Shown: piece after piece, positions 48,817 through 64,000 of the stretch
Layout: each line of letters begins with the position of its first letter
How positions within the stretch are numbered: the first letter of the stretch is position 1
DNA from: Synechococcus sp. CBW1002
GTDB lineage: Bacteria > Cyanobacteriota > Cyanobacteriia > PCC-6307 > Cyanobiaceae
DNA length: 64,000 nt
Assembly: GCF_015840915.1 (NCBI RefSeq)
Contig: NZ_CP060398.1
Span: forward strand, 1,860,001-1,924,000
Direction: 5' to 3'
Notes under the pieces: model-generated
Told to the model about the DNA's origin: nothing
The model's input: the letters and a program-made list of their open reading frames with translations, nothing else
Database searches by the model: none
Translations under genes and position numbers: made by a program

Positions 48817-49092
48817 ATGGACCAAGAACAGCTTTCCAAGATATTCGCCGAAAATCCCACTTATCTTGAAGACATCGGCAAGCTCGGTACTCCTGATGAA
48901 ATTGTGGTTTATCTGTCACAGAAAGGCGTCACCGTTACAAGTGGCGATTTGATTCGCTACGCTTCAGAATCGGTTACGGAGCTCGATGATGCAGCGCTTG
49001 CGTCCGTTGCTGGTGGGGCTTGGACGAACAGTGATGACAATGATAGAGCGGTAGTGAGCGGCGTTATATCCTTCGGCATGATGGTAAAATAA
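48817..49092 (+). CDS. Nif11-leader precursor peptide 1
   Basis: 91 residues. A 67-residue Nif11-type leader (LSKIFAENPTYLEDIGKL, KGVTVTSGDLIRYASE) ends in TELDDAALASVAGG, the classic double-glycine cleavage site. The predicted core has 24 residues: it begins AWTNSDDNDRAVV and ends MMVK, with three Ser/Thr in polar positions and no Cys. It lies alone in AT-richer DNA after the aldolase gene, with precursor 2 following 46 bp later. The NHLM transporter 7 kb away is the likely processing protease and exporter. ATG 48817 is preferred to an upstream frame. Confidence 0.88.
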   Translation: MDQEQLSKIFAENPTYLEDIGKLGTPDEIVVYLSQKGVTVTSGDLIRYASESVTELDDAALASVAGGAWTNSDDNDRAVVSGVISFGMMVK

Positions 49093-49138
49093 ATTTTAAT
49101 CCACTTAGTACTTAGTATCCAATCAGCTACCTAAAACA

Positions 49139-49453
49139 ATGTCTTTCCAGCAGCTTGTTGACGCTTGCCAAACAGATACAACATTGGCGGAGGCGATAAA
49201 GACTTCAGAATCCATTGATGGCATTTGCGCTCTTGCTCTCCAGCATGGAATTAGTGTGACGCCAGAAGAGGTCATCAAAGGAACTGCGGCAATTACATCT
49301 GAATTGTCAGATGCAGATCTTGCTGGCGTAGCAGGAGGGTCTTGGTCTGGAAATGAGGGAGTAGATTCAGGCCTCGCGTGGGCGGGTGGAGTTGTTGGTG
49401 CTGGTGTAGCTGTACCAGCAGCAATGGCAGCCACTGCGATTCTTATTAAGTAA
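49139..49453 (+). CDS. Nif11-leader precursor peptide 2
   Basis: 104 residues. The leader is again exactly 67 residues, with the pattern QQLVDACQTDTTLAEAI, LALQHGISVTPEEVIKG and SELSDADLAGVAGG. The 37-residue core starts SWSGNEGVDSGLAW and continues as a hydrophobic, Gly/Ala/Val-rich stretch with GxxxG-like spacing, ending in ILIK. It has no Cys, so thioether or lanthionine rings are unlikely. The composition suits a membrane-active peptide. A strong terminator lies 56 bp downstream, so the two precursors probably form one transcript. Confidence 0.88.
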   Translation: MSFQQLVDACQTDTTLAEAIKTSESIDGICALALQHGISVTPEEVIKGTAAITSELSDADLAGVAGGSWSGNEGVDSGLAWAGGVVGAGVAVPAAMAATAILIK

Positions 49454-49508: not shown

Positions 49509-49533
49509 GGCCGCCATTTGGGCGGCCTTTTTT
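49509..49533 (+). terminator. Rho-independent terminator after precursor 2
   Basis: Arms GGCCGCC and GGCGGCC enclose ATTTG and are followed by six or more T residues. The IS3-type fossil begins immediately beyond it. Confidence 0.92.
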
Positions 49534-49621: not shown

Positions 49622-50766
49622 GTGTGCCGTCCTGCAAATAACAGCTAGAAACAGGAGTGTCACCCGAGGTGCCCTGTGGCGCTTGGTCGTCCGATGCCTC
49701 CGCTGGTCCTCAGCGAGGACGAAGTTCAGCAGTTGCGGGCCCTTGCGAATTCCCGGTCGCTGCCGCATTCGATCGTGCAGCGAGCCCAGATCGTCCTGGC
49801 CTGCGGAGCAGGCGAAACCAATACGGCGATCGCCAAACGAATGGGACTGACGGGCATGACCGTTGGCAAGTGGCGCAAACGGTACCTGGAGCTGGGCTTG
49901 GAAGGCCTCCATGACGAGCTCAGGCCTGGCCGGCCCCGCACCTATGAAGACGACAAGGTGGCTGAGGTGATCAACCGGGCCCTGCAGACCAAACCCACCG
50001 ACGGCAGTACCCAGTGGTCCGCGCGCTCACTCGCGGCTGCCACTGGCGTCTCCAAGACCACCGTTCACCGCTGGCTGCAGATCTTCTCGGTGCAGCCGCA
50101 CCGCCAGAAGACATTCAAGTTGTCGACGGATCCTTTCTTTGTCGAGAAGGTCAGGGGCATCGTCGGCCTCTATCTGAATCCTCCGGATAAGGCGATGGTG
50201 CTCTGCGTCGACGAGAAGACGCAGATCCAGGCCCTGGACAGGACTCAGCCGCTGCTGCCCATGGGCCTCGGTTACGTCGAGGGCGTCACCCATGACTACA
50301 TCCGCCACGGCACCACCACCCTGTTCGCCGCCTTGGACGTGGCCACCGGTGAGGTGATCAGCCAGTGCAAGCCCCGGCACCGGCATCAGGAGTTCCTGGG
50401 CTTCCTGCGGCAGATCGAGACGTCCGTCCCCGAGGACCTTGATGTCCACCTGATCGTGGACAACTACTGCACGCATAAGCACGCCAAGGTCCGTGCCTGG
50501 CTGGCACAACGGCCCCGCTTCCACGTGCACTACACACCCACCTACGCCTCCTGGCTGAACCAGGTGGAGCGCTGGTTCGGGATCATCACCCAGCGGGCGA
50601 TCCGGCGCGGCAGCTTCTCCAGCGTCAAAGAGCTGATCGCCAAGATCGAGCAGTTCGTGGCGGCCTACAACAAGACCAAGGCCCCGTTCAACTGGACGGC
50701 AACCGCCGACTCGATCCTGGAGAAGCTCCAGCGACTTTGCTCACAAATCTCCAGGACGGGACACTA
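49620..50766 (+). mobile_element. IS630-family insertion sequence
   Basis: Ends are marked by inverted repeats starting AGTGTGCCGTCCTG on the left and, on the opposite strand, AGTGTCCCGTCCTG on the right. A TA dinucleotide flanks both, as expected for IS630/Tc1 elements. It contains one intact transposase gene. It landed between two head-to-head small repeats; restoring the target joins them at a single TA. Confidence 0.85.
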
Positions 50767-50767
50767 G
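49676..50767 (+). CDS. IS630-family transposase
   Basis: 363 residues. N-terminal helix-turn-helix region (TNTAIAKRMGLTGMTVGKW) followed by a second HTH (AATGVSKTTVHRWL). The DDE catalytic core is complete: Asp in LCVDEKTQIQALD, Asp in LIVDNYCTHKH and Glu in WLNQVERWFGI. A GTG at 49676 or the ATG at 49694 may start it. The stop codon lies in the right terminal repeat. The gene appears intact, so the element could be mobile. Confidence 0.9.
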   Translation: MALGRPMPPLVLSEDEVQQLRALANSRSLPHSIVQRAQIVLACGAGETNTAIAKRMGLTGMTVGKWRKRYLELGLEGLHDELRPGRPRTYEDDKVAEVINRALQTKPTDGSTQWSARSLAAATGVSKTTVHRWLQIFSVQPHRQKTFKLSTDPFFVEKVRGIVGLYLNPPDKAMVLCVDEKTQIQALDRTQPLLPMGLGYVEGVTHDYIRHGTTTLFAALDVATGEVISQCKPRHRHQEFLGFLRQIETSVPEDLDVHLIVDNYCTHKHAKVRAWLAQRPRFHVHYTPTYASWLNQVERWFGIITQRAIRRGSFSSVKELIAKIEQFVAAYNKTKAPFNWTATADSILEKLQRLCSQISRTGH

Positions 50768-50792
50768 CCGCAGGCTTCCGCGAAGCGGTAGG
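50765..50792 (+). repeat. Small dispersed repeat, copy 2
   Basis: 28 bases, TAGCCGCAGGCTTCC through GAAGCGGTAGG, with an internal GCTTC/GAAGC hairpin. It joins the IS630 element to a truncated IS630 tail. Confidence 0.65.
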
Positions 50793-50928
50793 AGCTGATC
50801 GCCAAGATCGAGCAGTTCGTGGCGGCCTACAACAAGACCAAAGCCCCGTTCAACTGGACGGCCACAGCAGATTCAATCCTGGAGAAGCTCCAGCGACTTT
50901 GCTTGCAAATCTCCGGGACGGCACACTA
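50793..50928 (+). pseudogene. Truncated second IS630 tail
   Basis: This segment repeats the last 130 or so bases of the adjacent IS630 transposase gene (ELIAKIEQFVAAYNKTKAPF), with several silent differences, and ends in its own terminal repeat and TA. It has no start, so it is the remnant of an older copy. Confidence 0.85.
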
Positions 50929-50934
50929 GAGGGC

Positions 50935-51348
50935 CTTGATCTCCCGCTGGTCCTGGAGCCTTTCGAGCTCCTTCTGCTCAGCCATCGTCAGCACCGGCTT
51001 GGCATTGGCATCCTGGGCTGCCTGCCGCCAAGGGTTAACCTGCTCAGGGTACAGCCCTCGCTCCCGGCAGTAGGCACTGAGCGCGGTGGCGTACTGCTTC
51101 GCAGGCCTACGGCTACAGCCCTGCCGTCTCCAGCACCACCGTGAACTTGTCGGTGGCGACGCCCCAGCCCTCAGGATCCTTCTCGGATGCCGGCACCACC
51201 TCCCCCTGCAACCGCCAGGTCTTCCTCCATTTGTAGAGGGTGATCACGTGGCTGCCCAGTTCTTCTGAAATCCGGGCCACGCTCTGGCGTTGCGGCGGGT
51301 CATCCGCCTTCTCAGATCAGCCTTGACGGCCTCGCTGTAACGACGCAT
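50935..51348 (-). pseudogene. Fossil IS3-type orfA
   Basis: From ATG 51348 leftward the frame reads MRRYSEAVKADLRRRMT, then after a frame change QSVARISEELGSHVITLYKW and, further on, SAYCRERGLYPEQ and WRQAAQDANAK. These match the intact OrfA at 52894-53403 in order (YDQAVRAEIRNRMS, AYCRERGLYPKQ, WRQAAEDANG). At least one frameshift and an inserted small repeat destroy it, and its end is cut by the IS630 insertions. It is not a copy of the neighbouring IS3 element but a diverged relative. Confidence 0.75.
51090..51114 (-). repeat. Small dispersed repeat, copy 3
   Basis: About 25 bases, TAGCCGTAGGCCTGC to AGTAC leftward. It is inserted inside the fossil orfA between the codons for TAGL and SAYCRERG of the ancestral protein. 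Confidence 0.6.
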
Positions 51349-51376
51349 CGAACCACTCCATCAAGCCTACTCTTGA

Positions 51377-51626
51377 TTAGGTAGCAAGCTCCGCATTCCT
51401 GAGGTGACGCTCGGGACGTGCGGTGCAGATACAGACGGCATGAACCACCCGGTCCGTCATCGCCGAAAGATTGAAGCGCCGGTTGAAGCGGTAAGTGAAG
51501 GCGCCCAGGTAGCGGTCGGCGTACTTATCGAATCGCAAGGCGTGAAACGTGCCGCTGAAGCTGGTTTTCAGGTTGCTGAGTATCGTGTTGATCCAGTGGA
51601 ATTCAGGCAGCTCATTGCGGGACCTA
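51377..51626 (-). pseudogene. C-terminal fragment of the IS1595-like transposase
   Basis: Reads RNELPEFHWINTILSNLKTS, FSGTFHALRFDKYADRYLG and YRFNRRFNLSAM, the standard C-terminus of ISXO2-like transposases. The N-terminal part is at 53460-54184, on the other side of the inserted IS3-like element. Confidence 0.85.
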
Positions 51627-51838
51627 TCAGGGAAGTTGTCCGCTCGGGGTGCTGAGCTGAGCACCGAACTTGAGTGTACTGCGGGTTGAGGTTCAGGGTC
51701 GCCGTGGCCGGGGTGTCGTTGTCATCGATGGCTGTCTTTGGTCGGGGTTGGGGCGTCCGGCCCCTGTTCGCGGCTGTGTCCGATGGCGCCCACCGAGGGG
51801 CGCCATCGGACAGCCACGGGGGCCTGGATTGTTGAGGG

Positions 51839-52918
51839 TCAAGTAGCGATAGGTTGCTGCGGACGGGGATGGTTGATGCTCACAACCTGTGGCTGGCTCC
51901 AGTCACGGATGTGACGACTCCAGCGCTGCGGATTCTTCTGCCGAGCTTCTTCGTAGGTCTTCTGCCGGATGGCACAGATCCCATCGGCCTGGCCGTAGTG
52001 CCGCTGATTGGGCGTCACGTACTTGATGCCGCTGTGCCGGTGCTCAGCGTTGTACCACTCGACAAAGCCATCCACCCAGGCTTTTACCGAGAGCAGTTCC
52101 CGGAAGCGCCGTAGCGGATAACTCTGGTGGTACTTCATGGTACGGAACCATGATTCAGCGTAGGCGTTGTCGTTGCTGACGCGCGGCCTGGAGAACGAGA
52201 GCGAAACACCCAGCTCCGCCATCTTGGCCGCCAAGGCGAATGAGCGCATGGGGGCGCCATTGTCCGAGTGCAGGACCGCAGCAGTCTCCTTGTTGATTCC
52301 TTCATCGCGGCAGACGCGATCAAAGAATGCGCTGGCGAGCACGCTGCATTCGCGCTCATGCACTTCCACTCCAAGGATGCGGCGGCTCCACACATCCATC
52401 ACCATGTAGAGGTAGTAGAATTGACCCTTGACATGGCCGGGCAACAGGGTGATATCCCAGGCCAGCACTTGGTAAACTCCTGTTGCCTCCAGCACCGGGA
52501 CTGGTCTTGGCTCGCGGGGAGAGCGGGCCCTGCCACGATGATTCAGCAGGCCTTCCTGCCGCATGATGCGATAGATCGTCGACTCTGAACCCACATACAT
52601 TCTCTCCTCAGCAAGAATGGCCACGATCTGAGCAGGCGCAAGATCGGCAAAGCGCGGATCATTGACGGAGTCAATCACCCGCTGCCGCTCTTTTGCCGTG
52701 AATCTGTGAGCCACTTCACGTGGGGCACCCTTGCGGCGGTCCACACTGAATCCCTGGCCGCTGATATCAAGCCCCCAGCGCCGCAGAGTGCGTGAACAGA
52801 TGCCGATCAGATCAGCAACAGCCTTGATGGAAGCTCCTGCATTGAGGCCTTCATGGAGAAAGTCCATGGCTTTATTTCTCTGCTCTGACGGAATCAGGAC
52901 TCCTCTTCTTGCAGCCAA
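51839..52918 (-). CDS. IS3-family transposase OrfB
   Basis: 359 residues. The DDE core is complete: Asp in VLAWDITLLPG, Asp in AVLHSDNGAPM, Glu in YAESWFRTMKYH. The usual IS3 features flank it: RIMRQEGLL before and FVEWYNAEHRHSGIKYVTP after. The frame begins inside the end of orfA (25-bp overlap, TTG start), so OrfB is probably made as a fusion by programmed frameshifting, as in other IS3 elements. Confidence 0.9.
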   Translation of the reverse strand: MAARRGVLIPSEQRNKAMDFLHEGLNAGASIKAVADLIGICSRTLRRWGLDISGQGFSVDRRKGAPREVAHRFTAKERQRVIDSVNDPRFADLAPAQIVAILAEERMYVGSESTIYRIMRQEGLLNHRGRARSPREPRPVPVLEATGVYQVLAWDITLLPGHVKGQFYYLYMVMDVWSRRILGVEVHERECSVLASAFFDRVCRDEGINKETAAVLHSDNGAPMRSFALAAKMAELGVSLSFSRPRVSNDNAYAESWFRTMKYHQSYPLRRFRELLSVKAWVDGFVEWYNAEHRHSGIKYVTPNQRHYGQADGICAIRQKTYEEARQKNPQRWSRHIRDWSQPQVVSINHPRPQQPIAT

Positions 52919-53403
52919 AGCTGATCGAGCTTTTTTGACAGCATCAGCAATGTTGCCGCCTCCGAAAGAGCTTTTTCCTTCTTCTGCAACTCACGTTCAA
53001 GGCGCCGGATCTGGCGTGCCTGCTCCTGGTTTTTGCGCTGTAGATCCCTGTGGTCGGTCATGGTCGGCGCGCTGGGGCCATTGGCATCCTCAGCGGCCTG
53101 GCGCCAGCGGGCAAGCTGTTTGGGGTAGAGGCCCCGCTCACGGCAGTAAGCGCCGAGATCGGGGCCGCTGAGGCCTGCGGCCTGGATCACGGCGGCCAGT
53201 TTGTCGGATGCGCCCCACTGCTCCGGCGGCTTGCTGGTGGCCGGCACCAGCTGGCCCTCTTTCTGCCACTGACTGCGCCAGTTGTAGAGGGTCTGGGTAG
53301 TGATGCCGGTGGAGCGAGCGATCTCGGCCACGCTCTCTCGGTTGGGCGGGCTCATGCGATTGCGGATCTCAGCCCGCACGGCCTGGTCATAAATCGGTTT
53401 CAT
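52894..53403 (-). CDS. IS3-type transposase OrfA
   Basis: 169 residues, starting at an ATG. The helix-turn-helix (ESVAEIARSTGITTQTLYNW) is near residue 25. A second domain AYCRERGLYPKQLARWRQA and a coiled-coil, leucine-zipper-like C-terminus (RRLERELQKKEKALSEA) follow. The end overlaps orfB in a purine-rich stretch (AAGAAGAGGAG) suited to a shift of frame. Related to the fossil orfA at 50935-51348. Confidence 0.88.
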   Translation of the reverse strand: MKPIYDQAVRAEIRNRMSPPNRESVAEIARSTGITTQTLYNWRSQWQKEGQLVPATSKPPEQWGASDKLAAVIQAAGLSGPDLGAYCRERGLYPKQLARWRQAAEDANGPSAPTMTDHRDLQRKNQEQARQIRRLERELQKKEKALSEAATLLMLSKKLDQLWLQEEES

Positions 53404-53459
53404 GGTCCTCGGTTTGGCCCCCTAGTGGATGGGTCAGACCGAGCGGACTTCTTTCCTGA

Positions 53460-54184
53460 CGCAGGGGGTTGGGATGGCGTCCGTTCACTACCACAGGGTG
53501 ATGGAAGCAACCGACTTCTGCCACGGCTCGGAAGCAAGCCAGTCCATCAGATACCACTTCACACCCTATCGCCAATGAATCCTGGGCCCAGTCAGCGATA
53601 GCTGCAAACGAGAACGTCGGGACTGTTGAAAGCTTCACATGAACCGGGCAGCCAGTGTCATCAAGGGAGACGGCGGCAACGATGGGGACCTTGTTTTCCG
53701 ATCCTCGACCTGTCTTGCCACCACGTCGTTCTCCCCCAAGGTAGGCATCATCCACTTGCACCTTTCCCCGCAGGACATAGGCCTCCTCCCGCTCGCTCAT
53801 CGCCTGCATGATCTTGTTGTGAACCAGCCACGCGGTGCGGTAGTTCACTCCGAGATGGCGCATCAGGGCGAGGGAGGAAATGCCGGTCTTGGCCTGTCCC
53901 ACCAAATAGAAAGCGAGGAACCAGGTCGTCAGGGGTAACTTGGTCGCCTCCATGATGGTACCGGCCGTGAGGGTGGCCTGATGGCGGCAGTTCCGGCACT
54001 GGTAGCGCTTGTGGCGCCGGCCATGGATGATCCCATGCTCCTGAGTGTGACAACGTGGGCAACGAAAGCCATCTGGCCAGCGCGCTTGCTCAAGTGCGGC
54101 CTCACACTTCTCCTCTGTGCCGTAGAGCTCTATGAACTGAGGCAGAGAAAGACTCGGCTGGAACTGGATCCGATTCATGGCCAT
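53460..54184 (-). pseudogene. N-terminal part of the IS1595-like transposase
   Basis: The first 240 or so residues of an ISXO2-like transposase. A zinc-finger pair (FRCPRCHTQEHG, YQCRNCRHQATLT) leads, followed by the catalytic Asp region GKVQVDDAYLGGERRGGK and VVSDGLACFRAV. The sequence is intact up to VNGRHPNP, where the IS3-like element interrupts it. The C-terminal piece is at 51377-51626. Confidence 0.87.
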
Positions 54185-54268
54185 AGCGATCCCGACGGGT
54201 ACATGTGTATCAGTCTACGCGCTGGAAGGGCTCTGACGGAGCTTGCTACCTAATCAAGAGCCTACTTG

Positions 54269-56035
54269 GGGACTCCTGAAAAAGATTCTCGGCCCATCGG
54301 CGCCGGATTCGTCCGTTTGCTTCGCGTTAATCAGGCTGGCAAGCGCGGTGACATCAAGTCGGCCAGATCTCAAAAGCCTGGCCTGCAGATGCCCTCAGGC
54401 GCTCTGATCGCTGACCAGGCCATAAAAAAGCTGTAGATCCACCCAAAAAGAAGGACAAAAAGGAGGCGCAGCAGCCTCAAGACCTTTTCCGCGCACATCA
54501 CGACAAAGGCCATCGAGATGGAGGATTCGGCACCAGCTGGTAGACGAGCCATGATCAGATCCAGGGAATACTTGCGCTTTCCAGAGCCAAAGACGCCTTC
54601 CACTTCATTGCGTCGAGCTTGATCAGATCGGAGCTGGTGCTTGTGTGCAGTGGTGACATCAGGATCCTTGGGCGGGCGACCCAATCGCTTGCCGGAGAGG
54701 CGAATACCGTTCCTCGTGCAGAAATGCCTATTCTTGGCCGTGATATAAATCCGGTCGGCGCAGATGCGCTCTGGGTAAGATCCTGTATCCAGCTTGTATT
54801 TTTCCGCCTGAGCGATCAGGTCTTCTCCTTCGTTGTAGGGGTTCCAGCTTATGCGGTGCAGGAACGGAAAGCCGTTTTGAACCGAAACACTGACTTTGGC
54901 TCCAAACTCCACCGCAGCACGTGCTTTGCCTCGCACCATTGGGCGGATATGGGTCTGCACAAGATTCACTAGGCGGTCTGGAATGCTGTTGGTCTGAGAG
55001 GCGAGCAGAAGGCCCTGTTGCCGCTCCAACTCGCTGCAGGCCAACAACTTCTGCCACCAATGCCTCTTAAGCTCGGAAAGCCTTGCCCCGCAGCCGATCA
55101 GAGCATCAATGGCCTTGAGATTCTGCCGCACATAGCCAAGCTGATGTTTAATGGCAGCCTTCACTTTGCGGCGACGTGGTCGTTTTTGCTTCGCCACTCT
55201 CAGGAAATGAGCACGAGCAAGGCCACGGTCGTAGCGAGGTCGATGTCTCCTGAATCCCGATGACTGACTGCACAGATCATCAATGACTCGCTCGGTCGTT
55301 GTGCGAGCCTCGTTGAGGAGCTTGAGGTCTCTGGGATAGGTGATGTCGGCTGGAGTGCAACTGGCATCAATCGTGAGAGTGCCCCAATTCTTTCCTTCTG
55401 GCCAGTCAGCAGGCTTGATCAACGCATCAAGTTCTAGCTGAGCGCCTCCTCCACTGGAATCACGATCATCATGGTCGTCATCGTCTGCTGCCTGAGCAAG
55501 TGCTTCCAGAAGGATCTCTTTGCCGCGCTGCACCACCAGCTCGTTGATAAGGCGCAGATCCTCGTCAGAGAAACGCTTGCGAAAGTGCACCATCATCGAG
55601 GCATCAAACGGTGCCTTGGCTGTGTAGCCCGCAAAGCCGAGAAAGAACTGAATATAGGCGTTCTCTCTGATCTGATGGACTGTCTCTTCGTCGGTGAGCC
55701 CTAACTTCTGTTTGATGTAGAGAGCACCAAAGGCCATTCTCACTGATTTGGCTGGAGCGCCAATTGTGGCGCTGAATTGAGGGGCATAGGTTTCTTCCAG
55801 CTCACCCCATGGGATCAGCCCCTCCAGTTGAACCCAGCGATTCTCGGGATCAAGTGTGCCGCCAAATGGCAGGTGGAACTCCTTGATTGAGATCTGACCG
55901 TTATTGTGCCTCCGGTACATATGGAGCGATCAGGAGTAAAGGCAATCACGGATTGCCTGATTCACGGCCACTTTAGCGGTTTCTCATGCTTGAGACCAGC
56001 TGCGGCGCAATGGATCTGGATTTTTCAGGAGTCCC
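54269..56035 (-). mobile_element. IS5/IS1182-like insertion sequence with target duplication
   Basis: Perfect 15-base inverted repeats GGGACTCCTGAAAAA stand at both ends. TACTTG directly outside each end (54263-54268 and 56036-56041) is the target duplication. It abuts the IS1595-like element; removing both restores a GCCTACTTGTGG target. It carries one intact transposase gene. Confidence 0.9.
54370..55920 (-). CDS. IS5/IS1182-like transposase
   Basis: 516 residues. N-terminal DUF772-type domain (KSVRMAFGALYIKQKLGLTD, YIQFFLGF, FRKRFSDEDL), then the catalytic DDE region beginning GTLTIDASCTPADITYPRDL. Late motifs ERICADRIYITAKNR and RNEVEGVFGSGKRKYSLD follow. The frame is intact. The family is placed between IS5 and IS1182 by eye. 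Confidence 0.85.
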   Translation of the reverse strand: MYRRHNNGQISIKEFHLPFGGTLDPENRWVQLEGLIPWGELEETYAPQFSATIGAPAKSVRMAFGALYIKQKLGLTDEETVHQIRENAYIQFFLGFAGYTAKAPFDASMMVHFRKRFSDEDLRLINELVVQRGKEILLEALAQAADDDDHDDRDSSGGGAQLELDALIKPADWPEGKNWGTLTIDASCTPADITYPRDLKLLNEARTTTERVIDDLCSQSSGFRRHRPRYDRGLARAHFLRVAKQKRPRRRKVKAAIKHQLGYVRQNLKAIDALIGCGARLSELKRHWWQKLLACSELERQQGLLLASQTNSIPDRLVNLVQTHIRPMVRGKARAAVEFGAKVSVSVQNGFPFLHRISWNPYNEGEDLIAQAEKYKLDTGSYPERICADRIYITAKNRHFCTRNGIRLSGKRLGRPPKDPDVTTAHKHQLRSDQARRNEVEGVFGSGKRKYSLDLIMARLPAGAESSISMAFVVMCAEKVLRLLRLLFVLLFGWIYSFFMAWSAIRAPEGICRPGF

Positions 56036-56154: not shown

Positions 56155-58359
56155 CTAACTGGTGTAGCTTGTAAGACTGTCAGTCAAGAGCCCCTGCGCG
56201 ACTAGTTCATGGAAGGATCCAGTTGCCTTAAGGCGATGATCTTCGATGTAAAGGATCTGATCTGCTTCTTGAATGGTTGAAAGCCGATGAGCTACCACAA
56301 TTCGGGTACAACCTGCATCCCTAATATTCTTGCTAACGACTTCCTGAGACATGGCATCCAAAGCGCTCGTGGCTTCATCTAACAACAAGACCTTAGGCTT
56401 TGAAATAAGAGCTCGGGCTATCCCTAGCCTTTGACGCTCGCCACCAGATATACTGGAACCAACTTCGGTTATGATTGTATCAAGCCCCATTGGCAGTTTT
56501 TGAATCCTCTCATCAATAGCTGCCTGTTTCAAAGCATGCCACACTTCTTCTTCTGTATAATATTTACCAGCACTAACAATTTCGAAAATGCTTCCCGGCG
56601 GAAGTCTTGTTGATTGAATGACGACTCCAACTTGCTGACGATAGTATTTAATGTTCAGCTTAGACAACGGAGTCCCATCAATTGCGATGGAGCCCGACCA
56701 TGGCTCGTACAGGCCAAGAAGCAATTTGAGTATAGTTGTCTTACCGCAACCACTTTTCCCGGTTATGGCCGTAAAACTGCCCGGCTGCACAGAAAAAGAC
56801 AACTCTTTAAATAGAAAGTCACTATCGTTTTCATAGATAAATGAAACATTGTTGAAAGATATTGCCCCCTTGATATTAGCCATCACTGCAGAAGGAGAAT
56901 AACCTTGTTCTTCTTGAGCAAAAATGACTGGCTTAGCGCGATCCCATTCAACCACCGCCTGAGACGCGACGCTAGAGAGGCTGCTTACAGCTGAATGCAG
57001 CTGAGAATTGAATGCCACATAAGCACTGTAAAAAGGAACAAAGATAATGATAGACTGGACAAGTTGCTTGGGATCGGCTTGGCCTGGTGAGAGTATAAAA
57101 TTATAGACTAAATAAAAATAAATTGCAAGTGTTCCTAGAGGATTCCAAATCGAGTTAAAGCTGCTTAATAAGCCACTCCAGTACATGATTCGACGATCAA
57201 GATTGGTTGCCAATGAAATCTTACTTGTCCACTCTTTGAAAACAAAGGGCTCACTTCCTGTGGAGCGGATCTGAGGCATTCCAAATATTGTTTGGTACGA
57301 AAAGTCGGCCATATCTGCATAGGCTTTAGCCTTGGGTAGCTGTAGAAGTGATTGCCTATGAATTAAAAATACAGTAACTACAATGCTTACAAGGGTCACT
57401 CCTGCTGCAACAAAAGCTAGATTTCGATCATATGTAAACATCAATACAAAGTAGACAGCCGAAAATACTAGCGTAAGCAGGGCCAGTAGTACTTGGTTCC
57501 CAAGAAGTTGCCTGATTGTCGATATAGATGATACGCGCATCATTAAGTCAGCTGCCGTATATTTTTGAAAGAATTTAAAAGGTAACTTAAGTACCTTGGT
57601 CCACACGGCAGTCTGCAATTTGGTATTGACGCTAAACTCAATGGCCAAGAGAGAAAGCGACTGAAAATGTCTACATATTGCCGAACTAATAATGATAAGA
57701 GTCGCTGGTATAATGCTTTGAATTAAAAGCGAAAGGCTTGACGAAGGGATGACCGTCTGCACTAGAAAGCTGGTAATCCATGGTACCGCTAATCCAAGTA
57801 TGGCCACCAAGAGCGAGGCAAATACGATAACGAGCAATTTAATAGTATCTGTTCGGAACGCGTATTTGAGTAATGAAAATGGAGATGTAACACTACTCGG
57901 AAAGTGCGAATATGCCTCAAAGATCTTATTTGGCTTTCTTAGGATATTGGGATCAGGATTTTTTGCTATGGCGCCATCATATGGATTGTAGGTGTAGCTT
58001 TTTCCTTTGCGTGTAAAGAATACGACATGGGAGCCATCATCCCGAATGACGAGAGTAGGCAAGGTGGGAGGATCGGCTATTGATACCCCAATCGTATCAA
58101 TGGATGTTCGACGCAAATGGATCTGGTTATACTCATATAAATCTACAAGACTGGTATCCTTGACGAGGCGAAGGGTAGTATCTATTGCAAGTAAAGAGTG
58201 GATAAAAGCAAGGGCATCATAGGCATCAATATTGGTTCGCTCTGGCAAGGACTGATCAAGTAACGATGGATCATCGGTGCAGTCTAAAATGGCCTGCAAT
58301 GTTTGAATCCTTGATTGAGAAAAGGAGTCGTTATTGTCATTCATGCTGTTATTGATCAT
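56155..58359 (-). CDS. NHLM-type ABC transporter, second subunit (no peptidase)
   Basis: 734 residues. The N-terminal 150 residues (VIRDDGSHVVFFTRKGKSYT) resemble the cyclic-nucleotide-like or degenerate domain of NHLM bacteriocin ABC2 proteins, followed by six helices and an ATPase. Walker A GKSGCGKT, signature SISGGERQRLG, Walker B KVLLLDEATSALD and H-loop VVAHRLS are all intact. The gene is AT-rich compared with the core genome. It overlaps the peptidase-containing transporter gene by 4 bp and is the last of three coupled genes that would export the Nif11-leader peptides. Confidence 0.9.
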   Translation of the reverse strand: MINNSMNDNNDSFSQSRIQTLQAILDCTDDPSLLDQSLPERTNIDAYDALAFIHSLLAIDTTLRLVKDTSLVDLYEYNQIHLRRTSIDTIGVSIADPPTLPTLVIRDDGSHVVFFTRKGKSYTYNPYDGAIAKNPDPNILRKPNKIFEAYSHFPSSVTSPFSLLKYAFRTDTIKLLVIVFASLLVAILGLAVPWITSFLVQTVIPSSSLSLLIQSIIPATLIIISSAICRHFQSLSLLAIEFSVNTKLQTAVWTKVLKLPFKFFQKYTAADLMMRVSSISTIRQLLGNQVLLALLTLVFSAVYFVLMFTYDRNLAFVAAGVTLVSIVVTVFLIHRQSLLQLPKAKAYADMADFSYQTIFGMPQIRSTGSEPFVFKEWTSKISLATNLDRRIMYWSGLLSSFNSIWNPLGTLAIYFYLVYNFILSPGQADPKQLVQSIIIFVPFYSAYVAFNSQLHSAVSSLSSVASQAVVEWDRAKPVIFAQEEQGYSPSAVMANIKGAISFNNVSFIYENDSDFLFKELSFSVQPGSFTAITGKSGCGKTTILKLLLGLYEPWSGSIAIDGTPLSKLNIKYYRQQVGVVIQSTRLPPGSIFEIVSAGKYYTEEEVWHALKQAAIDERIQKLPMGLDTIITEVGSSISGGERQRLGIARALISKPKVLLLDEATSALDAMSQEVVSKNIRDAGCTRIVVAHRLSTIQEADQILYIEDHRLKATGSFHELVAQGLLTDSLTSYTS

Positions 58360-60512
58360 TGGCTTACCTTCTCAAGCTCTACCATTTTGTTAAAGGCTCC
58401 GTTCATTTGTAGAAGTTTAGAAGGGGGACCAGATTCAATAACTTTTCCGCCATCCATAACATAAACATAGTCACTACTAAGGGCTGAGTATAGCCTGTGA
58501 GCCACTGTAATTGTTGTAATCTGACGAGATCTTATGTTGTTAAGGACAGCTTGTTCGGTTGCATCGTCGAGTGCACTCGTAGCCTCATCAAGAATCAAAA
58601 TGCTGGGATTTCTGGCAAGAGATCTAGCTATTGTCAGCCTCTGCTTCTGGCCTCCACTTAAGATTGACCCGAAGGAACCAAGACGCTTTGAATAAGATTC
58701 AGCATACTCTAATATTTTGGATTCAATCTCAGCATCTTGACATGAGGAGTAAATCTGCTCCTTTGGTATGCGCGTATCCCAGAGAGCAATATTATCATAA
58801 AAGTCAGTATCAAATAGCATAACGTCTTGAGGTATGTAGCCAAGAAACTTGCGAAAGTAATCTGTATCAATCTCTTGAATCTTCAGCTTGCCAACATAGA
58901 TATTGCCTGATTCAGGCTCAATCAAGCCAGAAATTATCTTTAAGAGCGTCGACTTACCTGATCCACTCGGGCCAACAATTGTTGTATGCGACTTTTCAGG
59001 AATAATCATAGATAAATCTTTAAAAAAATAATCTTCATAGAGGCTAAATTTAAAATTAATATTACGGATCTCCAAAGAGGAATCCTGTGGAAGTATCCCA
59101 AATGTTGAATCTAAATTTGCTACAAGGGAACGCACGTTGGGGTCCTTGTCAGATCCGTTAATGTCTTGGACCCTTCCAATCACACCCTCAAGGCTTTGCA
59201 TGGCTGGACCTAATTGTACCAAGGCTGTGATTGGAGCTTGCAAAATACTGCTAAGGAATTGAAATGCTAATAGTCCACCAACAGTAAACTCACCGACGAG
59301 TATTAAGTATCCACCCAGTAAAATTGAGCCAATATCGAGAAATAACGTGCTAGCAAAGCTCAGGGTGGAAAGATTTGTTTGCTTGATCCCTAGTTCTTGA
59401 GAAGTCTGATTAACGGGGACAAAGTAGTCCATCCATGAATTAAGAGAAGACGACTCCATCCCGGTAGACTTAACTGTTTCTATATCAACGATAGAAAGCA
59501 ATCCCTTGGAATAGAGAAGTCCTTGATCCATGGCGAGCTTCTTATTGTCGTCTGCAGTTCCTGCAATTTGCCTATTGGTAAAGTACATGTTCAGCATGGT
59601 ACCAAACAAGGTCAATAGAGTTAAGGGCCAAGAGATAAGAAAGACTGCAAATAAAACAATTGCAGCTTGAAGCAATGTTGTTCCATAAGAGTATATAATG
59701 CTGATAACGCTCTGAGAATAAACCAATCCTAGCGTCATTCGACTTGATAGCTCGGATGCAGAGCGCTGAGCTATGAATTTATAATTGGCCTCGAAAAGCT
59801 TTGAAAAAATAGCGGCGCTATAGCGCCTGCTCAGGTTAAATTGCAAACGGCGAGCAATTGCCGAGCTAATATTGGAGGAAGCAAAGATAAAGATAATGGC
59901 CAATAAGATAAGAATGACAATTGGCATTCCATAGTATGCACGCTGCTTGCTTAGGAAAGAGTTGACAAATTCGGACGTAGATGACGAGAGGAATAGCGTT
60001 GGGACAATTCCTATTACTCCTATCGCTAGATTTACTAGAGTAATCTTGGGATAGTAAAAAGGTACCCTGAATATCTCTTTCAAGAGATTAGTAGGCGCTC
60101 CACTCTTCTTGAATTCTGGGCCGGGTTTGATTACAAGAGCTACACCGGTATAGAATTTAAGAAATTCAGAGGCTGGCAAGGACCAACGACCCTGTGACGG
60201 ATCGGACAGATAAGCGCGCCCATTCTTGAAGCCTTCGAGGATAAGAAAATGATTAAAGTTCCAAAAGATAATGCAAGGCAGTTTATCATCGGTTAGTTGA
60301 TCAGCGGGAATTCGAAAGCCCCTCGCCTCCATGCCTTGTGTACGGGCCGCCTTCAGGAGATTGAGTGCATTAGAGCCATCTCTGGAGACGCCGCAGACAT
60401 CTCGCAATTCCGAAATACTCTTGTACTTTCCATAGTAAGCAAGAATTGCAGAGAGCGAGGCAGCGCCACACTCAACCACGTCATACTGTAAAACCGGCTT
60501 GACGTACTTCAT
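58356..60512 (-). CDS. C39-peptidase ABC transporter (NHLM type)
   Basis: 718 residues. The N-terminal C39 peptidase cuts after double glycine: catalytic Cys in YDVVECGAASLSAIL near residue 15, His in NFNHFLILEG near 90, Asp in LSDPSQGRW near 105. Six membrane helices follow, then the ATPase with Walker A GPSGSGKST, signature ILSGGQKQRL, Walker B ILILDEATSALDD. This fits the GG-ended leaders of the precursors at 48.8-49.5 kb. It begins one base past the adaptor gene's stop. Confidence 0.93.
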   Translation of the reverse strand: MKYVKPVLQYDVVECGAASLSAILAYYGKYKSISELRDVCGVSRDGSNALNLLKAARTQGMEARGFRIPADQLTDDKLPCIIFWNFNHFLILEGFKNGRAYLSDPSQGRWSLPASEFLKFYTGVALVIKPGPEFKKSGAPTNLLKEIFRVPFYYPKITLVNLAIGVIGIVPTLFLSSSTSEFVNSFLSKQRAYYGMPIVILILLAIIFIFASSNISSAIARRLQFNLSRRYSAAIFSKLFEANYKFIAQRSASELSSRMTLGLVYSQSVISIIYSYGTTLLQAAIVLFAVFLISWPLTLLTLFGTMLNMYFTNRQIAGTADDNKKLAMDQGLLYSKGLLSIVDIETVKSTGMESSSLNSWMDYFVPVNQTSQELGIKQTNLSTLSFASTLFLDIGSILLGGYLILVGEFTVGGLLAFQFLSSILQAPITALVQLGPAMQSLEGVIGRVQDINGSDKDPNVRSLVANLDSTFGILPQDSSLEIRNINFKFSLYEDYFFKDLSMIIPEKSHTTIVGPSGSGKSTLLKIISGLIEPESGNIYVGKLKIQEIDTDYFRKFLGYIPQDVMLFDTDFYDNIALWDTRIPKEQIYSSCQDAEIESKILEYAESYSKRLGSFGSILSGGQKQRLTIARSLARNPSILILDEATSALDDATEQAVLNNIRSRQITTITVAHRLYSALSSDYVYVMDGGKVIESGPPSKLLQMNGAFNKMVELEKVSQ

Positions 60513-61877
60513 CTATTGATTTCCTGGGAAGGTCGTGGGGCCTTCAAGTCCTGTATACTTCTTGAAATACGGTATTGCAATCTGCAGCGGAGTTTGGGTG
60601 TCGACAGCTATACTAATGTCAAGTTGAACCCCAACTCTTGGGGCGGCGTCGGGGCTGCTATTACCCGTCCATCTGTATTGATTGTCTGCACCAACTTTCT
60701 CTAGGGCCATTAGTATAACAGTAGGAGTTTGATCGGAATTTGATGCCGCACCCACTGCAGACTGTAGGCCACTTAGTTTGGCGATGGTCTCGCGATCTTT
60801 TGAGTAAGGCAAGACCTGCGTGATGTATCCCTTAATCCCTCCGTATTGAGACTTGTCTACCCCTTGTGGTGTGGCGACGACTTTCATGCCTGTCCGGACA
60901 AGGCTTGAGTAATTATCATCAACAAAGCCGATGACTTGATCGGGAAGCTGGCTTGGGGGGACGGAGGAAATGGACATTACAGTTGTGCCTGCCTCTACAA
61001 GTTGCTGAGTTCCCAAGTCAAGACTAACGACATACCCTTCGGCCGGGGAAATGATATAGTGCTTATTGATAAATCCTTTCAGTGTTGTGAACAATTCAGC
61101 CTGTGCCGATTTTTCTTTGGCTTCTAACTCCGCAAGGCGGGACTTAAGATTAGTTATTTGAGTGGCAGTCTGCGCGGCTGCAGATTTGGCAGAAAGCACT
61201 TGCTGGTTGTCTGAGGCACCTTGCGTCAATAATCCCTCGTATGACGAAACTAAATCACTCTTGAGGCGCAACTCTTTTTGATACATCTCTATATCAGTGA
61301 GTGCGGCTCTGCGGGCTGCTCGAATCTCGTTAAGGCCTGAATAGGTTCTGCCAACGCTCGTGCGCAGGTCGGCGCGTTCAGTCTCGTTAATAATAAGTCC
61401 CAGAATCTGGTGTTCTTTGACTGCGAAGCCGGATGTGCCAATCGTTTCCGCTAATGACGTTGTACTAGTTAATGCCGCGTACTTTCTAAAGCTTTGGTCT
61501 GTCGAGTCTTCGAGGAGGGCGTTGGCCAGCTGGATCATCTGCTCTGTGCTCGGCAATTGAGATATCCGCTGAAAATAGAATGAGATTATTTCTCGGTCAA
61601 CAGTTTGGCGCAATGTAATAATTTCAGGGCTAAAGAGAATAACTCTTCCGGAGGAGTTTGTGGAGACTGGGATGTTTTGATTGACATCAAGAATGATCCC
61701 GCTTGCGGGAACTCTAATCGGAATGGGTGCAACGGCTGCCCAGGCTGTTGCAAGAAAGGCCGCGGTAAAAAGTGTTCCAATCACCAAGCGCGTAGGAAGC
61801 AGCAGTAATGAGGCCGGTCGTGAAATGGGAGTCGATCGACGAGCATCGAGAGCTTCCTTGGAAAATATGCTATCCAA
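60513..61877 (-). CDS. HlyD-type adaptor of the NHLM export system
   Basis: 454 residues from a TTG start giving DSIFSKEALDARRS, close to the usual opening of NHLM secretion proteins. One membrane helix follows (LVIGTLFTAAFLATAWAAV), then a lipoyl half (IPVRVPASG-like, NSSGRVILFSPE), a long coiled coil and the second lipoyl half (ISPAEGYVVSLDLGTQQLVE). It bridges the inner-membrane ABC transporters to an outer-membrane channel. No channel gene is in the window. First gene of the three-gene export operon. Confidence 0.9.
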   Translation of the reverse strand: MDSIFSKEALDARRSTPISRPASLLLLPTRLVIGTLFTAAFLATAWAAVAPIPIRVPASGIILDVNQNIPVSTNSSGRVILFSPEIITLRQTVDREIISFYFQRISQLPSTEQMIQLANALLEDSTDQSFRKYAALTSTTSLAETIGTSGFAVKEHQILGLIINETERADLRTSVGRTYSGLNEIRAARRAALTDIEMYQKELRLKSDLVSSYEGLLTQGASDNQQVLSAKSAAAQTATQITNLKSRLAELEAKEKSAQAELFTTLKGFINKHYIISPAEGYVVSLDLGTQQLVEAGTTVMSISSVPPSQLPDQVIGFVDDNYSSLVRTGMKVVATPQGVDKSQYGGIKGYITQVLPYSKDRETIAKLSGLQSAVGAASNSDQTPTVILMALEKVGADNQYRWTGNSSPDAAPRVGVQLDISIAVDTQTPLQIAIPYFKKYTGLEGPTTFPGNQ

Positions 61878-62865: not shown

Positions 62866-63729
62866 ATGCAAAGATCAGCCCTACGTATACCTCGGTGTTT
62901 ATCTGCAGCGCTGTCTATCACCGCATGGCTTTCGCTAGCAGCATGCACTACGTCCAGCCAGCAAAAAGATCTGATTTTGGGAATTCAAGGTGCTGGTGGA
63001 CTGACTGAAACAGAGCGCCAATTTAAGCCGCTGGCAGACTACCTGTCTCAAAGTCTATCTCGCAATGTAAAGGTTGAGGTCATGCCCTCCTATCAAGCGG
63101 GCATGAACAGCATTAAAATCCATAAATATGCAATGGCGAAGCTTGGCCCCTATGCTTATGCCACTCTTCCGGTTAATTCGGGCTACAAGCTATTTGCGGG
63201 CGAGAGCTCTAAGGGTCTACCCTACTATTACTCCGTCTTCATAGCTCGCGCTGACTCTAATATCAAAGAGCTATCAGACGCCCGCGGCAAGAGAGTTGCA
63301 CTTGGGGATCCTCTGTCGGCATCTCAGTCTGTCCTTATCAACCGAGAATTGGCTTCTCTAGGCCTTTCAGCGGGAGTTGACTATACGGTCGTTAGGCTTG
63401 ATAATCATAAAGCCATTCTTAATGCCTTGGCATCCAATAAGGCCGATATTGGCCCAGTCTCTTCGCGTTTTCTTCCCAAGATTCTAGCCGCTAGTCCTAC
63501 GCTTTTTTCTGATCTAGTTGTTATTGGCAACTCAAGGCGTATTCCAAATGATGCCTGGGTCATCGACAGCACGCTTCCCAGCGACCTGAAGAGCAAGATT
63601 GAAGATGCATTCTTCTCCCTTGATGACACCAAAGTTACTGAAGAAATAGAAAATGTTGATCTGTTCAGGAATGTCTCCGATGACGAATATGATTTTTTGC
63701 GCACCACTCCTAGGTCTGCCAAGAAGTAG
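62866..63729 (+). CDS. PhnD/SsuA-like substrate-binding lipoprotein
   Basis: 287 residues. A lipobox LSLAAC near residue 25 marks a membrane-anchored periplasmic protein. The fold follows the phosphate/phosphonate-binding PhnD pattern: LILGIQGAGGLTETERQFKP, then KLGPYAYATLP, RGKRVALGDPLSASQS, ADIGPVSSRFLP. PhnD-like proteins bind phosphonates, phosphite or other oxyanions, but the lack of an ABC permease here leaves the ligand open. AT-richer than the core genome; the oxidase gene starts 6 bp later. Confidence 0.85.
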   Translation: MQRSALRIPRCLSAALSITAWLSLAACTTSSQQKDLILGIQGAGGLTETERQFKPLADYLSQSLSRNVKVEVMPSYQAGMNSIKIHKYAMAKLGPYAYATLPVNSGYKLFAGESSKGLPYYYSVFIARADSNIKELSDARGKRVALGDPLSASQSVLINRELASLGLSAGVDYTVVRLDNHKAILNALASNKADIGPVSSRFLPKILAASPTLFSDLVVIGNSRRIPNDAWVIDSTLPSDLKSKIEDAFFSLDDTKVTEEIENVDLFRNVSDDEYDFLRTTPRSAKK

Positions 63730-63735
63730 CTCTTG

Positions 63736-64000
63736 ATGTCTGCAATTGAAGCTGGTCAATATGACTTAATTATTGTAGGAGCCGGCTTGTCCGGATTAAG
63801 TCTTGCTTCCTCTTTGCCAAATCATTCAATCCTGATTCTTGAAGCGGAAGACTATGTTGGAGGACGAGTTTGCTCGCATCAGCTAGATGGGGTGTTCGCT
63901 GAACTCGGAGCCATCTTCCCTTTCAAATCAGCCAGACTTTCAGATTCTGATTCTATCCCACTTGCTAAGCCGCTTGGTTTGTATGAGAATGGCGTTCTCT
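63736..64000 (+). CDS. FAD-dependent amine-oxidase-like protein, N-terminal fragment
   Basis: The first 88 residues before the right edge. The Rossmann motif DLIIVGAGLSGLSLASSL and the following LEAEDYVGGRVCSHQL are typical of flavin amine oxidases and phytoene-desaturase relatives. Six bases separate it from the PhnD-like gene. The substrate and full length are outside the window. Confidence 0.85.
   Translation, partial: MSAIEAGQYDLIIVGAGLSGLSLASSLPNHSILILEAEDYVGGRVCSHQLDGVFAELGAIFPFKSARLSDSDSIPLAKPLGLYENGVL

What the first reader, a model, noticed from the sequence alone, without database searches (positions are those of the whole stretch)
48817..49453. Tandem Nif11-leader precursors with unusual, cysteine-free cores
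Seen: two adjacent small genes whose products share a 67-residue leader, both ending VAGG, then differ completely. Core 1 is polar and 24 residues long; core 2 is 37 residues, hydrophobic and Gly/Ala-rich with GxxxG-like spacing. Neither has Cys. Established: Nif11-type leaders direct peptides to modification and C39-ABC export. Inference: two complementary peptides without Cys look more like a two-peptide bacteriocin than a lanthipeptide.
Basis: partly seen in the sequence, partly recalled or inferred. Interest (0 to 1): 0.85.

Follow-up and report, generated by a model that had tools for sequence, protein, structure and literature searches.

The report
Paired precursors of a YcaO peptide pathway
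Two neighbouring small genes in a cyanobacterium encode the starting peptides of a rare natural-product pathway that probably alters the peptide backbone with a YcaO enzyme and exports the product; they are not simply an unmodified two-part bacteriocin.

Summary
ORF1 (48817-49092) and ORF2 (49139-49453) each have a 67-residue leader ending VAGG and a Cys-free core. The leaders are homologous, not identical (23/67). The cores are not wholly different: both end hydrophobic-[VI]-K.

The pair recurs intact in one other complete picocyanobacterial genome (G045), again with all the enzymes (dN/dS 0.13 and 0.41). In samples of 350-400 family genomes, close homologues of pair and enzymes occurred only in these two.

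Both genomes link the pair to a YcaO (the only one in the window's genome), a 2-oxoglutarate-oxygenase-like protein, a Rossmann protein, a FAD oxidoreductase and two unknown proteins. An NHLM-type C39 exporter lies inside the window. IS elements separate peptides from enzymes here.

The YcaO is sister (100/100) to YcaOs of Rhizobium, Sinorhizobium and Mycetohabitans, each beside a Nif11-leader precursor ending T[IP]MAAAL[VI]K and with the same oxygenase. Of 101 Nif11-like ORFs examined, only the eight from this clade end in [VI]K.

Best reading: precursors of a TfuA-less, LanM-less branch of a YcaO/Nif11 pathway, backbone-modified in the hydrophobic tail (thioamide likeliest, unproven), cleaved and exported. 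An unmodified two-peptide bacteriocin is not supported.

The parts
48817..49092 (+). ORF1, precursor 1 (91 aa): leader 48817-49017, core AWTNSDDNDRAVVSGVISFGMMVK 49018-49089
   Evidence: ortholog in G045 74% identical, dN/dS 0.13; leader 19.9 bits to TIGR03798, below cut-off
49057..49089 (+). ORF1 tail SGVISFGMMVK, proposed modified segment
   Evidence: resembles Rhizobium core TGTIMAAALVK, shuffle p 0.0003 (0.00005 for the G045 ortholog)
49139..49453 (+). ORF2, precursor 2 (104 aa): leader 49139-49339, core SWSGNEGVDSGLAWAGGVVGAGVAVPAAMAATAILIK 49340-49450
   Evidence: TIGR03798 43 bits, over cut-off; G045 ortholog 80% identical
49418..49450 (+). ORF2 tail AAMAATAILIK, proposed modified segment
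   Evidence: shuffle p about 0.02
49509..49527 (+). intrinsic terminator ending the two-gene unit
   Evidence: a stem with different sequence at the same place in G045
49676..55920 (.). block of insertion sequences (IS630-type 49676-50767 and further transposases to 55920) separating peptides from exporter
56155..58359 (-). ABC transporter without peptidase (NHLM ABC2-like)
   Evidence: TIGR03797 516 bits, below cut-off 709
58356..60512 (-). C39 peptidase/permease/ATPase (NHLM ABC1-like), proposed to cut after VAGG and export
   Evidence: PF03412 E 6.6e-32; TIGR03796 595 bits, below cut-off 853; catalytic Cys, His and Asp visible in the sequence
60513..61877 (-). HlyD-like adaptor
   Evidence: TIGR03794 88 bits, below cut-off 156
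62866..63729 (+). PhnD-like binding lipoprotein, directly upstream of the FAD gene; membership of the pathway uncertain
   Evidence: TIGR01098 136 bits; broken by stops and split by an IS in G045
63733..64000 (+). start of the FAD oxidoreductase gene (C1:1923733-1924977); the other enzyme genes lie beyond the window: toroid-like 1925013-1925954, YcaO 1929550-1930809, PhyH-like oxygenase 1930836-1931765, Rossmann protein 1931762-1932610, 381-aa protein 1932648-1933793 (minus)
   Evidence: orthologs 69-81% identical beside the peptide pair in G045

Best explanation
ORF1 and ORF2 are the two precursor peptides of one YcaO-dependent RiPP pathway, a TfuA-less and LanM-less cyanobacterial branch of a Nif11/YcaO/2-oxoglutarate-oxygenase pathway also found in Rhizobium, Sinorhizobium and Mycetohabitans. 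The Nif11 leader recruits the enzymes. The lone YcaO uses ATP to activate backbone amides in the hydrophobic C-terminal stretch (VISFGMMVK, MAATAILIK), most likely giving thioamides (chance about 0.4; azoline at the conserved Ser/Thr, or an amidine perhaps with the terminal Lys, are alternatives). The PhyH-like oxygenase, the FAD protein and the Rossmann protein tailor the product. The C39 transporter then cuts after VAGG and, with ABC2 and HlyD, exports it. Shown: gene pair, linkage, enzyme families, shared tail. Inferred: leader recognition, order of steps, chemistry, and an antagonistic or signalling role outside the cell.
For: Same pair and same six enzyme genes together in G045; close relatives of ORF1, ORF2, YcaO and oxygenase only in these two of 350-400 sampled family genomes; purifying selection; the only YcaO of the genome, with conserved Glu/Arg positions; YcaO sister to those beside Nif11 precursors in proteobacteria, 100/99 and 100/100, whose clusters share the oxygenase; [VI]K tail in 8 of 8 precursors of this YcaO clade and 0 of 93 others; C39 exporter in the window.
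Against: No product is known. Peptides and YcaO are 20 kb apart in the window's genome, separated by IS elements. TfuA, ThiS, MoeB and LanM of the proteobacterial clusters are not in the linked set. ORF2's tail matches the proteobacterial core only weakly (p about 0.02) and its core dN/dS is 0.77 over 35 codons. Only two genomes carry the system, so co-occurrence counts rest on two cases. Long branches in the second YcaO tree are flagged by the program.
Confidence: 0.75

Rival explanations
1. The YcaO makes oxazolines (LAP/TOMM chemistry) on the conserved Ser/Thr residues, as proposed for other Synechococcus YcaO clusters.
For: Hydroxyl residues are conserved at core position 3 of both peptides and before Gly in each; YcaO/SagB clusters are reported in Synechococcus (PMC10783134).
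Against: The YcaO is a stand-alone 419-aa type, outside the clade of 756-778-aa YcaOs of other picocyanobacteria (100/100); nearest NCBIfam and PDB hits are the McrA thioamidation model TIGR03266 and MJ1094; no SagB-like protein among the linked genes.
Confidence: 0.2
2. An unmodified two-peptide (class IIb) bacteriocin: both cores are cut at GG, exported, and pair through GxxxG contacts to make a pore.
For: Two adjacent genes, always together in 2 of 2 genomes; core 2 is Gly/Ala-rich with two conserved GxxxG and a 19-residue stretch of mean hydropathy 2.16; C39 exporter.
Against: Strict linkage to a YcaO enzyme set; both cores net -1; no GxxxG and no long hydrophobic stretch in core 1; no recognised immunity gene; [VI]K tail shared with single-precursor YcaO loci.
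Confidence: 0.07
3. A modified two-component product: both peptides pass through the YcaO pathway and act jointly.
For: One-to-one pairing and a common terminator in both genomes; both tails fit the same signature.
Against: Multi-precursor clusters with one promiscuous enzyme set and independent products are common for Nif11 peptides (PMC2887384); each genome also holds another Nif11-type precursor or remnant nearby.
Confidence: 0.3
4. Small secreted matrix or biofilm proteins with a GG secretion motif, like EbfG of Synechococcus elongatus, retained as structural proteins.
For: GG-motif small proteins serve biofilm development in S. elongatus (PMC4997328); core 2 is Gly/Ala-rich.
Against: Linkage to YcaO, oxygenase and FAD enzymes; very patchy distribution, 2 of about 400 genomes.
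Confidence: 0.05

Closest known systems
Nif11-leader precursors beside YcaO/TfuA in Rhizobium, Sinorhizobium and Mycetohabitans plasmids (product unknown)
   Same: Nif11 leader, sister YcaO, PhyH-like oxygenase, a Rossmann protein after it, C-terminal hydrophobic-[VI]-K
   Different: There: one precursor type with a 9-residue core, plus TfuA, second YcaO, MoeB, ThiS, methyltransferase, LanM. Here: two precursors with long spacers, none of those genes linked, but FAD, toroid-like and 381-aa proteins
Thioamitides (thiostreptamide S4, thioviridamide)
   Same: YcaO plus PF05721-type oxygenase acting on hydrophobic Met/Ala-rich core (PMC8153245)
   Different: No TfuA, no phosphotransferase/HopA1/cysteine decarboxylase recognised, no Cys, no His; Nif11 leader
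Synechococcus YcaO/SagB Nif11 clusters (PMC10783134)
   Same: Picocyanobacteria, Nif11 or NHLP-like leaders, YcaO
   Different: Those have SagB, often LanM, and Cys/Ser/Thr-rich cores; their YcaOs are described as related to LynD/TruD
Prochlorosins
   Same: Nif11 leader ending in double Gly, multiple precursors per genome
   Different: No Cys, no LanM marker found, YcaO set instead
Class IIb two-peptide bacteriocins
   Same: Two adjacent GG-leader genes, C39 export
   Different: Net negative cores, GxxxG in one core only, YcaO enzyme set, no recognised immunity gene

Membership tests
Nif11-derived precursors (N11P, TIGR03798) | Leader scores over the family cut-off | tested here: inconclusive
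   ORF2 43 bits (cut-off 32.3), met; ORF1 19.9 bits, not met, though homologous to ORF2's leader
Nif11-derived precursors (N11P, TIGR03798) | Double-Gly cleavage motif at leader end | tested here: met
   VAGG in both and in both G045 orthologs
Nif11-derived precursors (N11P, TIGR03798) | Nearby NHLM-type ABC/HlyD exporter | tested here: met
   Best NCBIfam models TIGR03796/03797/03794, below equivalog cut-offs
YcaO-modified RiPP | YcaO with ATP-site residues linked to the precursors | tested here: met
   PF02624 E 4.9e-34; linkage conserved in G045; conserved Glu/Arg columns
YcaO-modified RiPP | Modified product observed | not testable with these tools
   needs mass spectrometry
Thioamidated RiPP (YcaO-TfuA) | TfuA partner | tested here: not met
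   No TfuA in G000 or G045; found in G129, G299, G392 by the same search
Thioamidated RiPP (YcaO-TfuA) | Thioamides in the product | not testable with these tools
   needs exact mass
LAP/TOMM (azol(in)e peptides) | YcaO fused or paired with a ThiF-like C domain, with or without a SagB dehydrogenase | tested here: inconclusive
   Stand-alone 419-aa YcaO; linked proteins show no ThiF or SagB hit; outside the 756-778-aa YcaO clade. The whole genome was not searched for an unlinked partner
Class IIb two-peptide bacteriocin | Two cationic cores with GxxxG motifs | tested here: not met
   Both cores net -1; GxxxG in core 2 only
Class IIb two-peptide bacteriocin | Adjacent immunity gene | tested here: inconclusive
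   None recognised between ORF2 and the IS block or in G045
Lanthipeptide (prochlorosin) | Cys in the core | tested here: not met
   no Cys in either core
Lanthipeptide (prochlorosin) | LanM synthetase | tested here: inconclusive
   No DUF4135 hit in the genome, but no control genome rang either

The most novel reading that the evidence does not exclude
A TfuA-independent YcaO that modifies a Cys-free, Lys-terminated hydrophobic tail carried by two co-transcribed Nif11 precursors with long acidic or Gly-rich spacers: a RiPP class with its own backbone chemistry (TfuA-free thioamides, or an amidine using the invariant terminal Lys), and possibly a modified two-component product.
Probability: 0.3. 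Interest if true: 0.8.

Novelty: new variant of a known kind. Interest (0 to 1): 0.6.

Why it matters
It assigns substrates to an otherwise orphan YcaO/2OG-oxygenase enzyme set. It gives a testable signature (hydrophobic-[VI]-K tail on Nif11 precursors) that joins cyanobacterial and rhizobial/Mycetohabitans clusters. It offers a natural system without TfuA, ThiS or a second YcaO in the cluster, in which the chemistry of this YcaO clade can be read directly. It also shows that Cys-free Nif11 cores need not be unmodified bacteriocins.

Tried and rejected
LanM-based lanthipeptide (no Cys; no DUF4135 hit, no positive control). Unmodified class IIb bacteriocin. LynD-like azoline YcaO. Two genome-contig scans (YcaO, then the 381-aa protein) and one viral-contig scan found no relative, so the host species could not be named. 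PDB searches for the 381-aa, oxygenase and Rossmann proteins gave no significant hit; a guess that the 381-aa protein is a prenyltransferase found no support and was dropped. No plasmid match for ORF2 or the 381-aa protein, no phage match for the YcaO. No Rfam hit in 46-64 kb. The oxygenase homologues in G005 and G417 lie in unrelated contexts.

Full report
Observation. ORF1 (48817-49092) and ORF2 (49139-49453) exist as described. Both products have a 67-residue leader ending VAGG and Cys-free cores of 24 and 37 residues. The leaders are homologous (23/67 identical; alignment score 79 against shuffles 24.6 +/- 4.7) rather than shared. ORF2 passes the Nif11-leader model TIGR03798 (43 bits, cut-off 32.3) and ORF1 does not (19.9). 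The cores share an [AS]W[ST] start and a hydrophobic-[VI]-K end.

Reality of the genes. A genome of the same family (G045) encodes orthologs of both in the same order: ORF1 74% and ORF2 80% identical. dN/dS is 0.13 and 0.41 (core values 0.20 and 0.77 rest on 24 and 35 codons). An intrinsic terminator follows ORF2 in both genomes with different stem sequences. The homologous DNA block begins at ORF1 and ends about 150 bp after ORF2, so the pair looks like a cassette.

Surroundings. In the window, insertion sequences fill about 49.7-55.9 kb. Then come, on the minus strand, an ABC2 subunit, a C39 peptidase ABC transporter and an HlyD adaptor. These are best matched by the NHLM models TIGR03797/03796/03794, all below the equivalog cut-offs. 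The C39 domain is the strongest in the genome. Beyond the window's edge (C1:1923733-1933793) lie a FAD oxidoreductase, a toroid-like 313-aa protein (weak squalene-hopene cyclase similarity), a YcaO, a 309-aa PhyH-like protein, a 282-aa Rossmann protein and a 381-aa protein with no family. This is the only YcaO in the genome. No LanM marker was found, but that search had no positive control.

Linkage. In G045 the same six genes (69-81% identity) flank the peptide pair on both sides. Across family samples, close relatives occur only in G000 and G045: ORF1 in 2 of 350 genomes, ORF2 in 2 of 350, the YcaO in 2 of 400, the oxygenase in 2 of 400. The 381-aa protein has one distant relative, in G178, beside a run of Nif11-leader precursors. 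The exporter is only 25-40% identical between the two genomes, so export modules appear exchangeable while peptides and enzymes stay together.

Wider kinship. The closest YcaO proteins in the plasmid collection lie in Rhizobium, Sinorhizobium and Mycetohabitans clusters that also hold a Nif11-leader precursor. In two trees the window's YcaO joins the precursor-adjacent YcaO1 of these clusters (100/99; 100/100) and not the second YcaO. The program warns that long branches meet in the second tree. The same clusters encode the PhyH-like oxygenase with HxD...H conserved (32-40% identity in the matched part), followed by a Rossmann protein whose kinship rests on two short colinear patches. They also have TfuA, a second YcaO, MoeB and, where annotated, ThiS, a methyltransferase and LanM, which are not in the cyanobacterial sets; TfuA is absent from both cyanobacterial genomes.

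The shared tail. The proteobacterial precursors end ...[ST]GTIMAAALVK or ...VGTPMAAALIK. Aligned from the C terminus, ORF1 (SGVISFGMMVK; G045 TGAIAFGVMVK) and ORF2 (AAMAATAILIK; G045 MPAIGLAILIK) follow the same pattern, with Lys invariant. Of 101 distinct Nif11-like ORFs in the fetched loci, all 8 from this YcaO clade and none of the other 93 end in [VI]K. Collapsed to three peptide lineages, a simple count gives about 7e-6; this assumes independence, and the 101 ORFs were not sampled at random. The ORF1 tail beats composition-preserving shuffles at p 0.0003 and 0.00005, ORF2 at 0.01-0.02. Hence the modified part is probably the hydrophobic C-terminal stretch, and the polar start of core 1 may be a spacer (inference).

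Mechanism. Shown: two constrained precursors, linkage to one enzyme set, homology of the set and of the tail to other Nif11/YcaO loci. From established knowledge: YcaO proteins activate backbone amides with ATP; C39 domains cut after GG motifs; a PF05721 oxygenase hydroxylates a thioamitide residue (TsaJ, PMC8153245). Inferred: leader-guided YcaO action on the tail, tailoring by the oxygenase, FAD and Rossmann proteins, then C39 cleavage and export. Thioamides are likeliest because the nearest models are thioamidation YcaOs (TIGR03266, MJ1094) and sister loci carry sulfur-transfer genes. TfuA is missing, however; TfuA-independent thioamidation is reported for a subset of archaeal YcaOs (PMC6511847) and for E. 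coli YcaO (PMC13063428). The YcaO1 clade itself is untested.

Compared with what is known. Nif11 precursors with YcaO are known in Synechococcus, with SagB and Cys-rich cores (PMC10783134), and Nif11 precursors with TfuA are noted in rhizobia and cyanobacteria (PMC8120280). I found no paper holding the MAAALVK core or describing a TfuA-less two-precursor branch; the library is partial. Verdict: a new variant of a known kind. The unmodified two-peptide bacteriocin reading is not supported; joint action of two modified products remains possible.

Noticed in passing
G000:C1 about 1909000-1961000 (window 49.7 kb onward and beyond): Dense accumulation of insertion sequences of many families, several nearly identical copies, around the RiPP genes.
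   Followed up: no
G000:C1:1939189-1939500 and 1959593-1959739: Two further Nif11-type precursor genes: one with core AWQGPDNV... ending RIGQ, one a remnant whose core stops after SWAGNE; they look like decayed paralogs of ORF1/ORF2.
   Followed up: partly
G045:C1:2630897-2631247 (minus): A third Nif11-type precursor inside the G045 cluster, core FNIRPPVTLPGPLAGAVAAVAGTSGMNPTFNINNTANITINIG, without the [VI]K tail.
   Followed up: no
G178:C1:1448507-1452473: Distant homologue of the 381-aa protein next to at least four Nif11-leader precursors with Cys-containing cores: an unassigned family that recurs beside Nif11 peptides.
   Followed up: partly
G299:C71:127246-129430 (L118) and G129:C1:111390-114364 (L117): YcaO-TfuA pairs with small GG peptides of very hydrophobic core (VNVVAIVVVVVVGASSAAAACV; DTCGWVAVGVGVAALF) and NHLM-type exporters, likely thioamidated peptides in picocyanobacteria.
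   Followed up: partly
window 62866-63729: PhnD-like binding lipoprotein 3 bp upstream of the FAD gene; in G045 its homologue is a pseudogene with stops and an IS insertion.
   Followed up: partly
G000:C1:1953281-1954927: Ferredoxin and an AurF-like diiron protein adjacent to each other, 20 kb downstream of the YcaO; relation to the pathway unknown.
   Followed up: no
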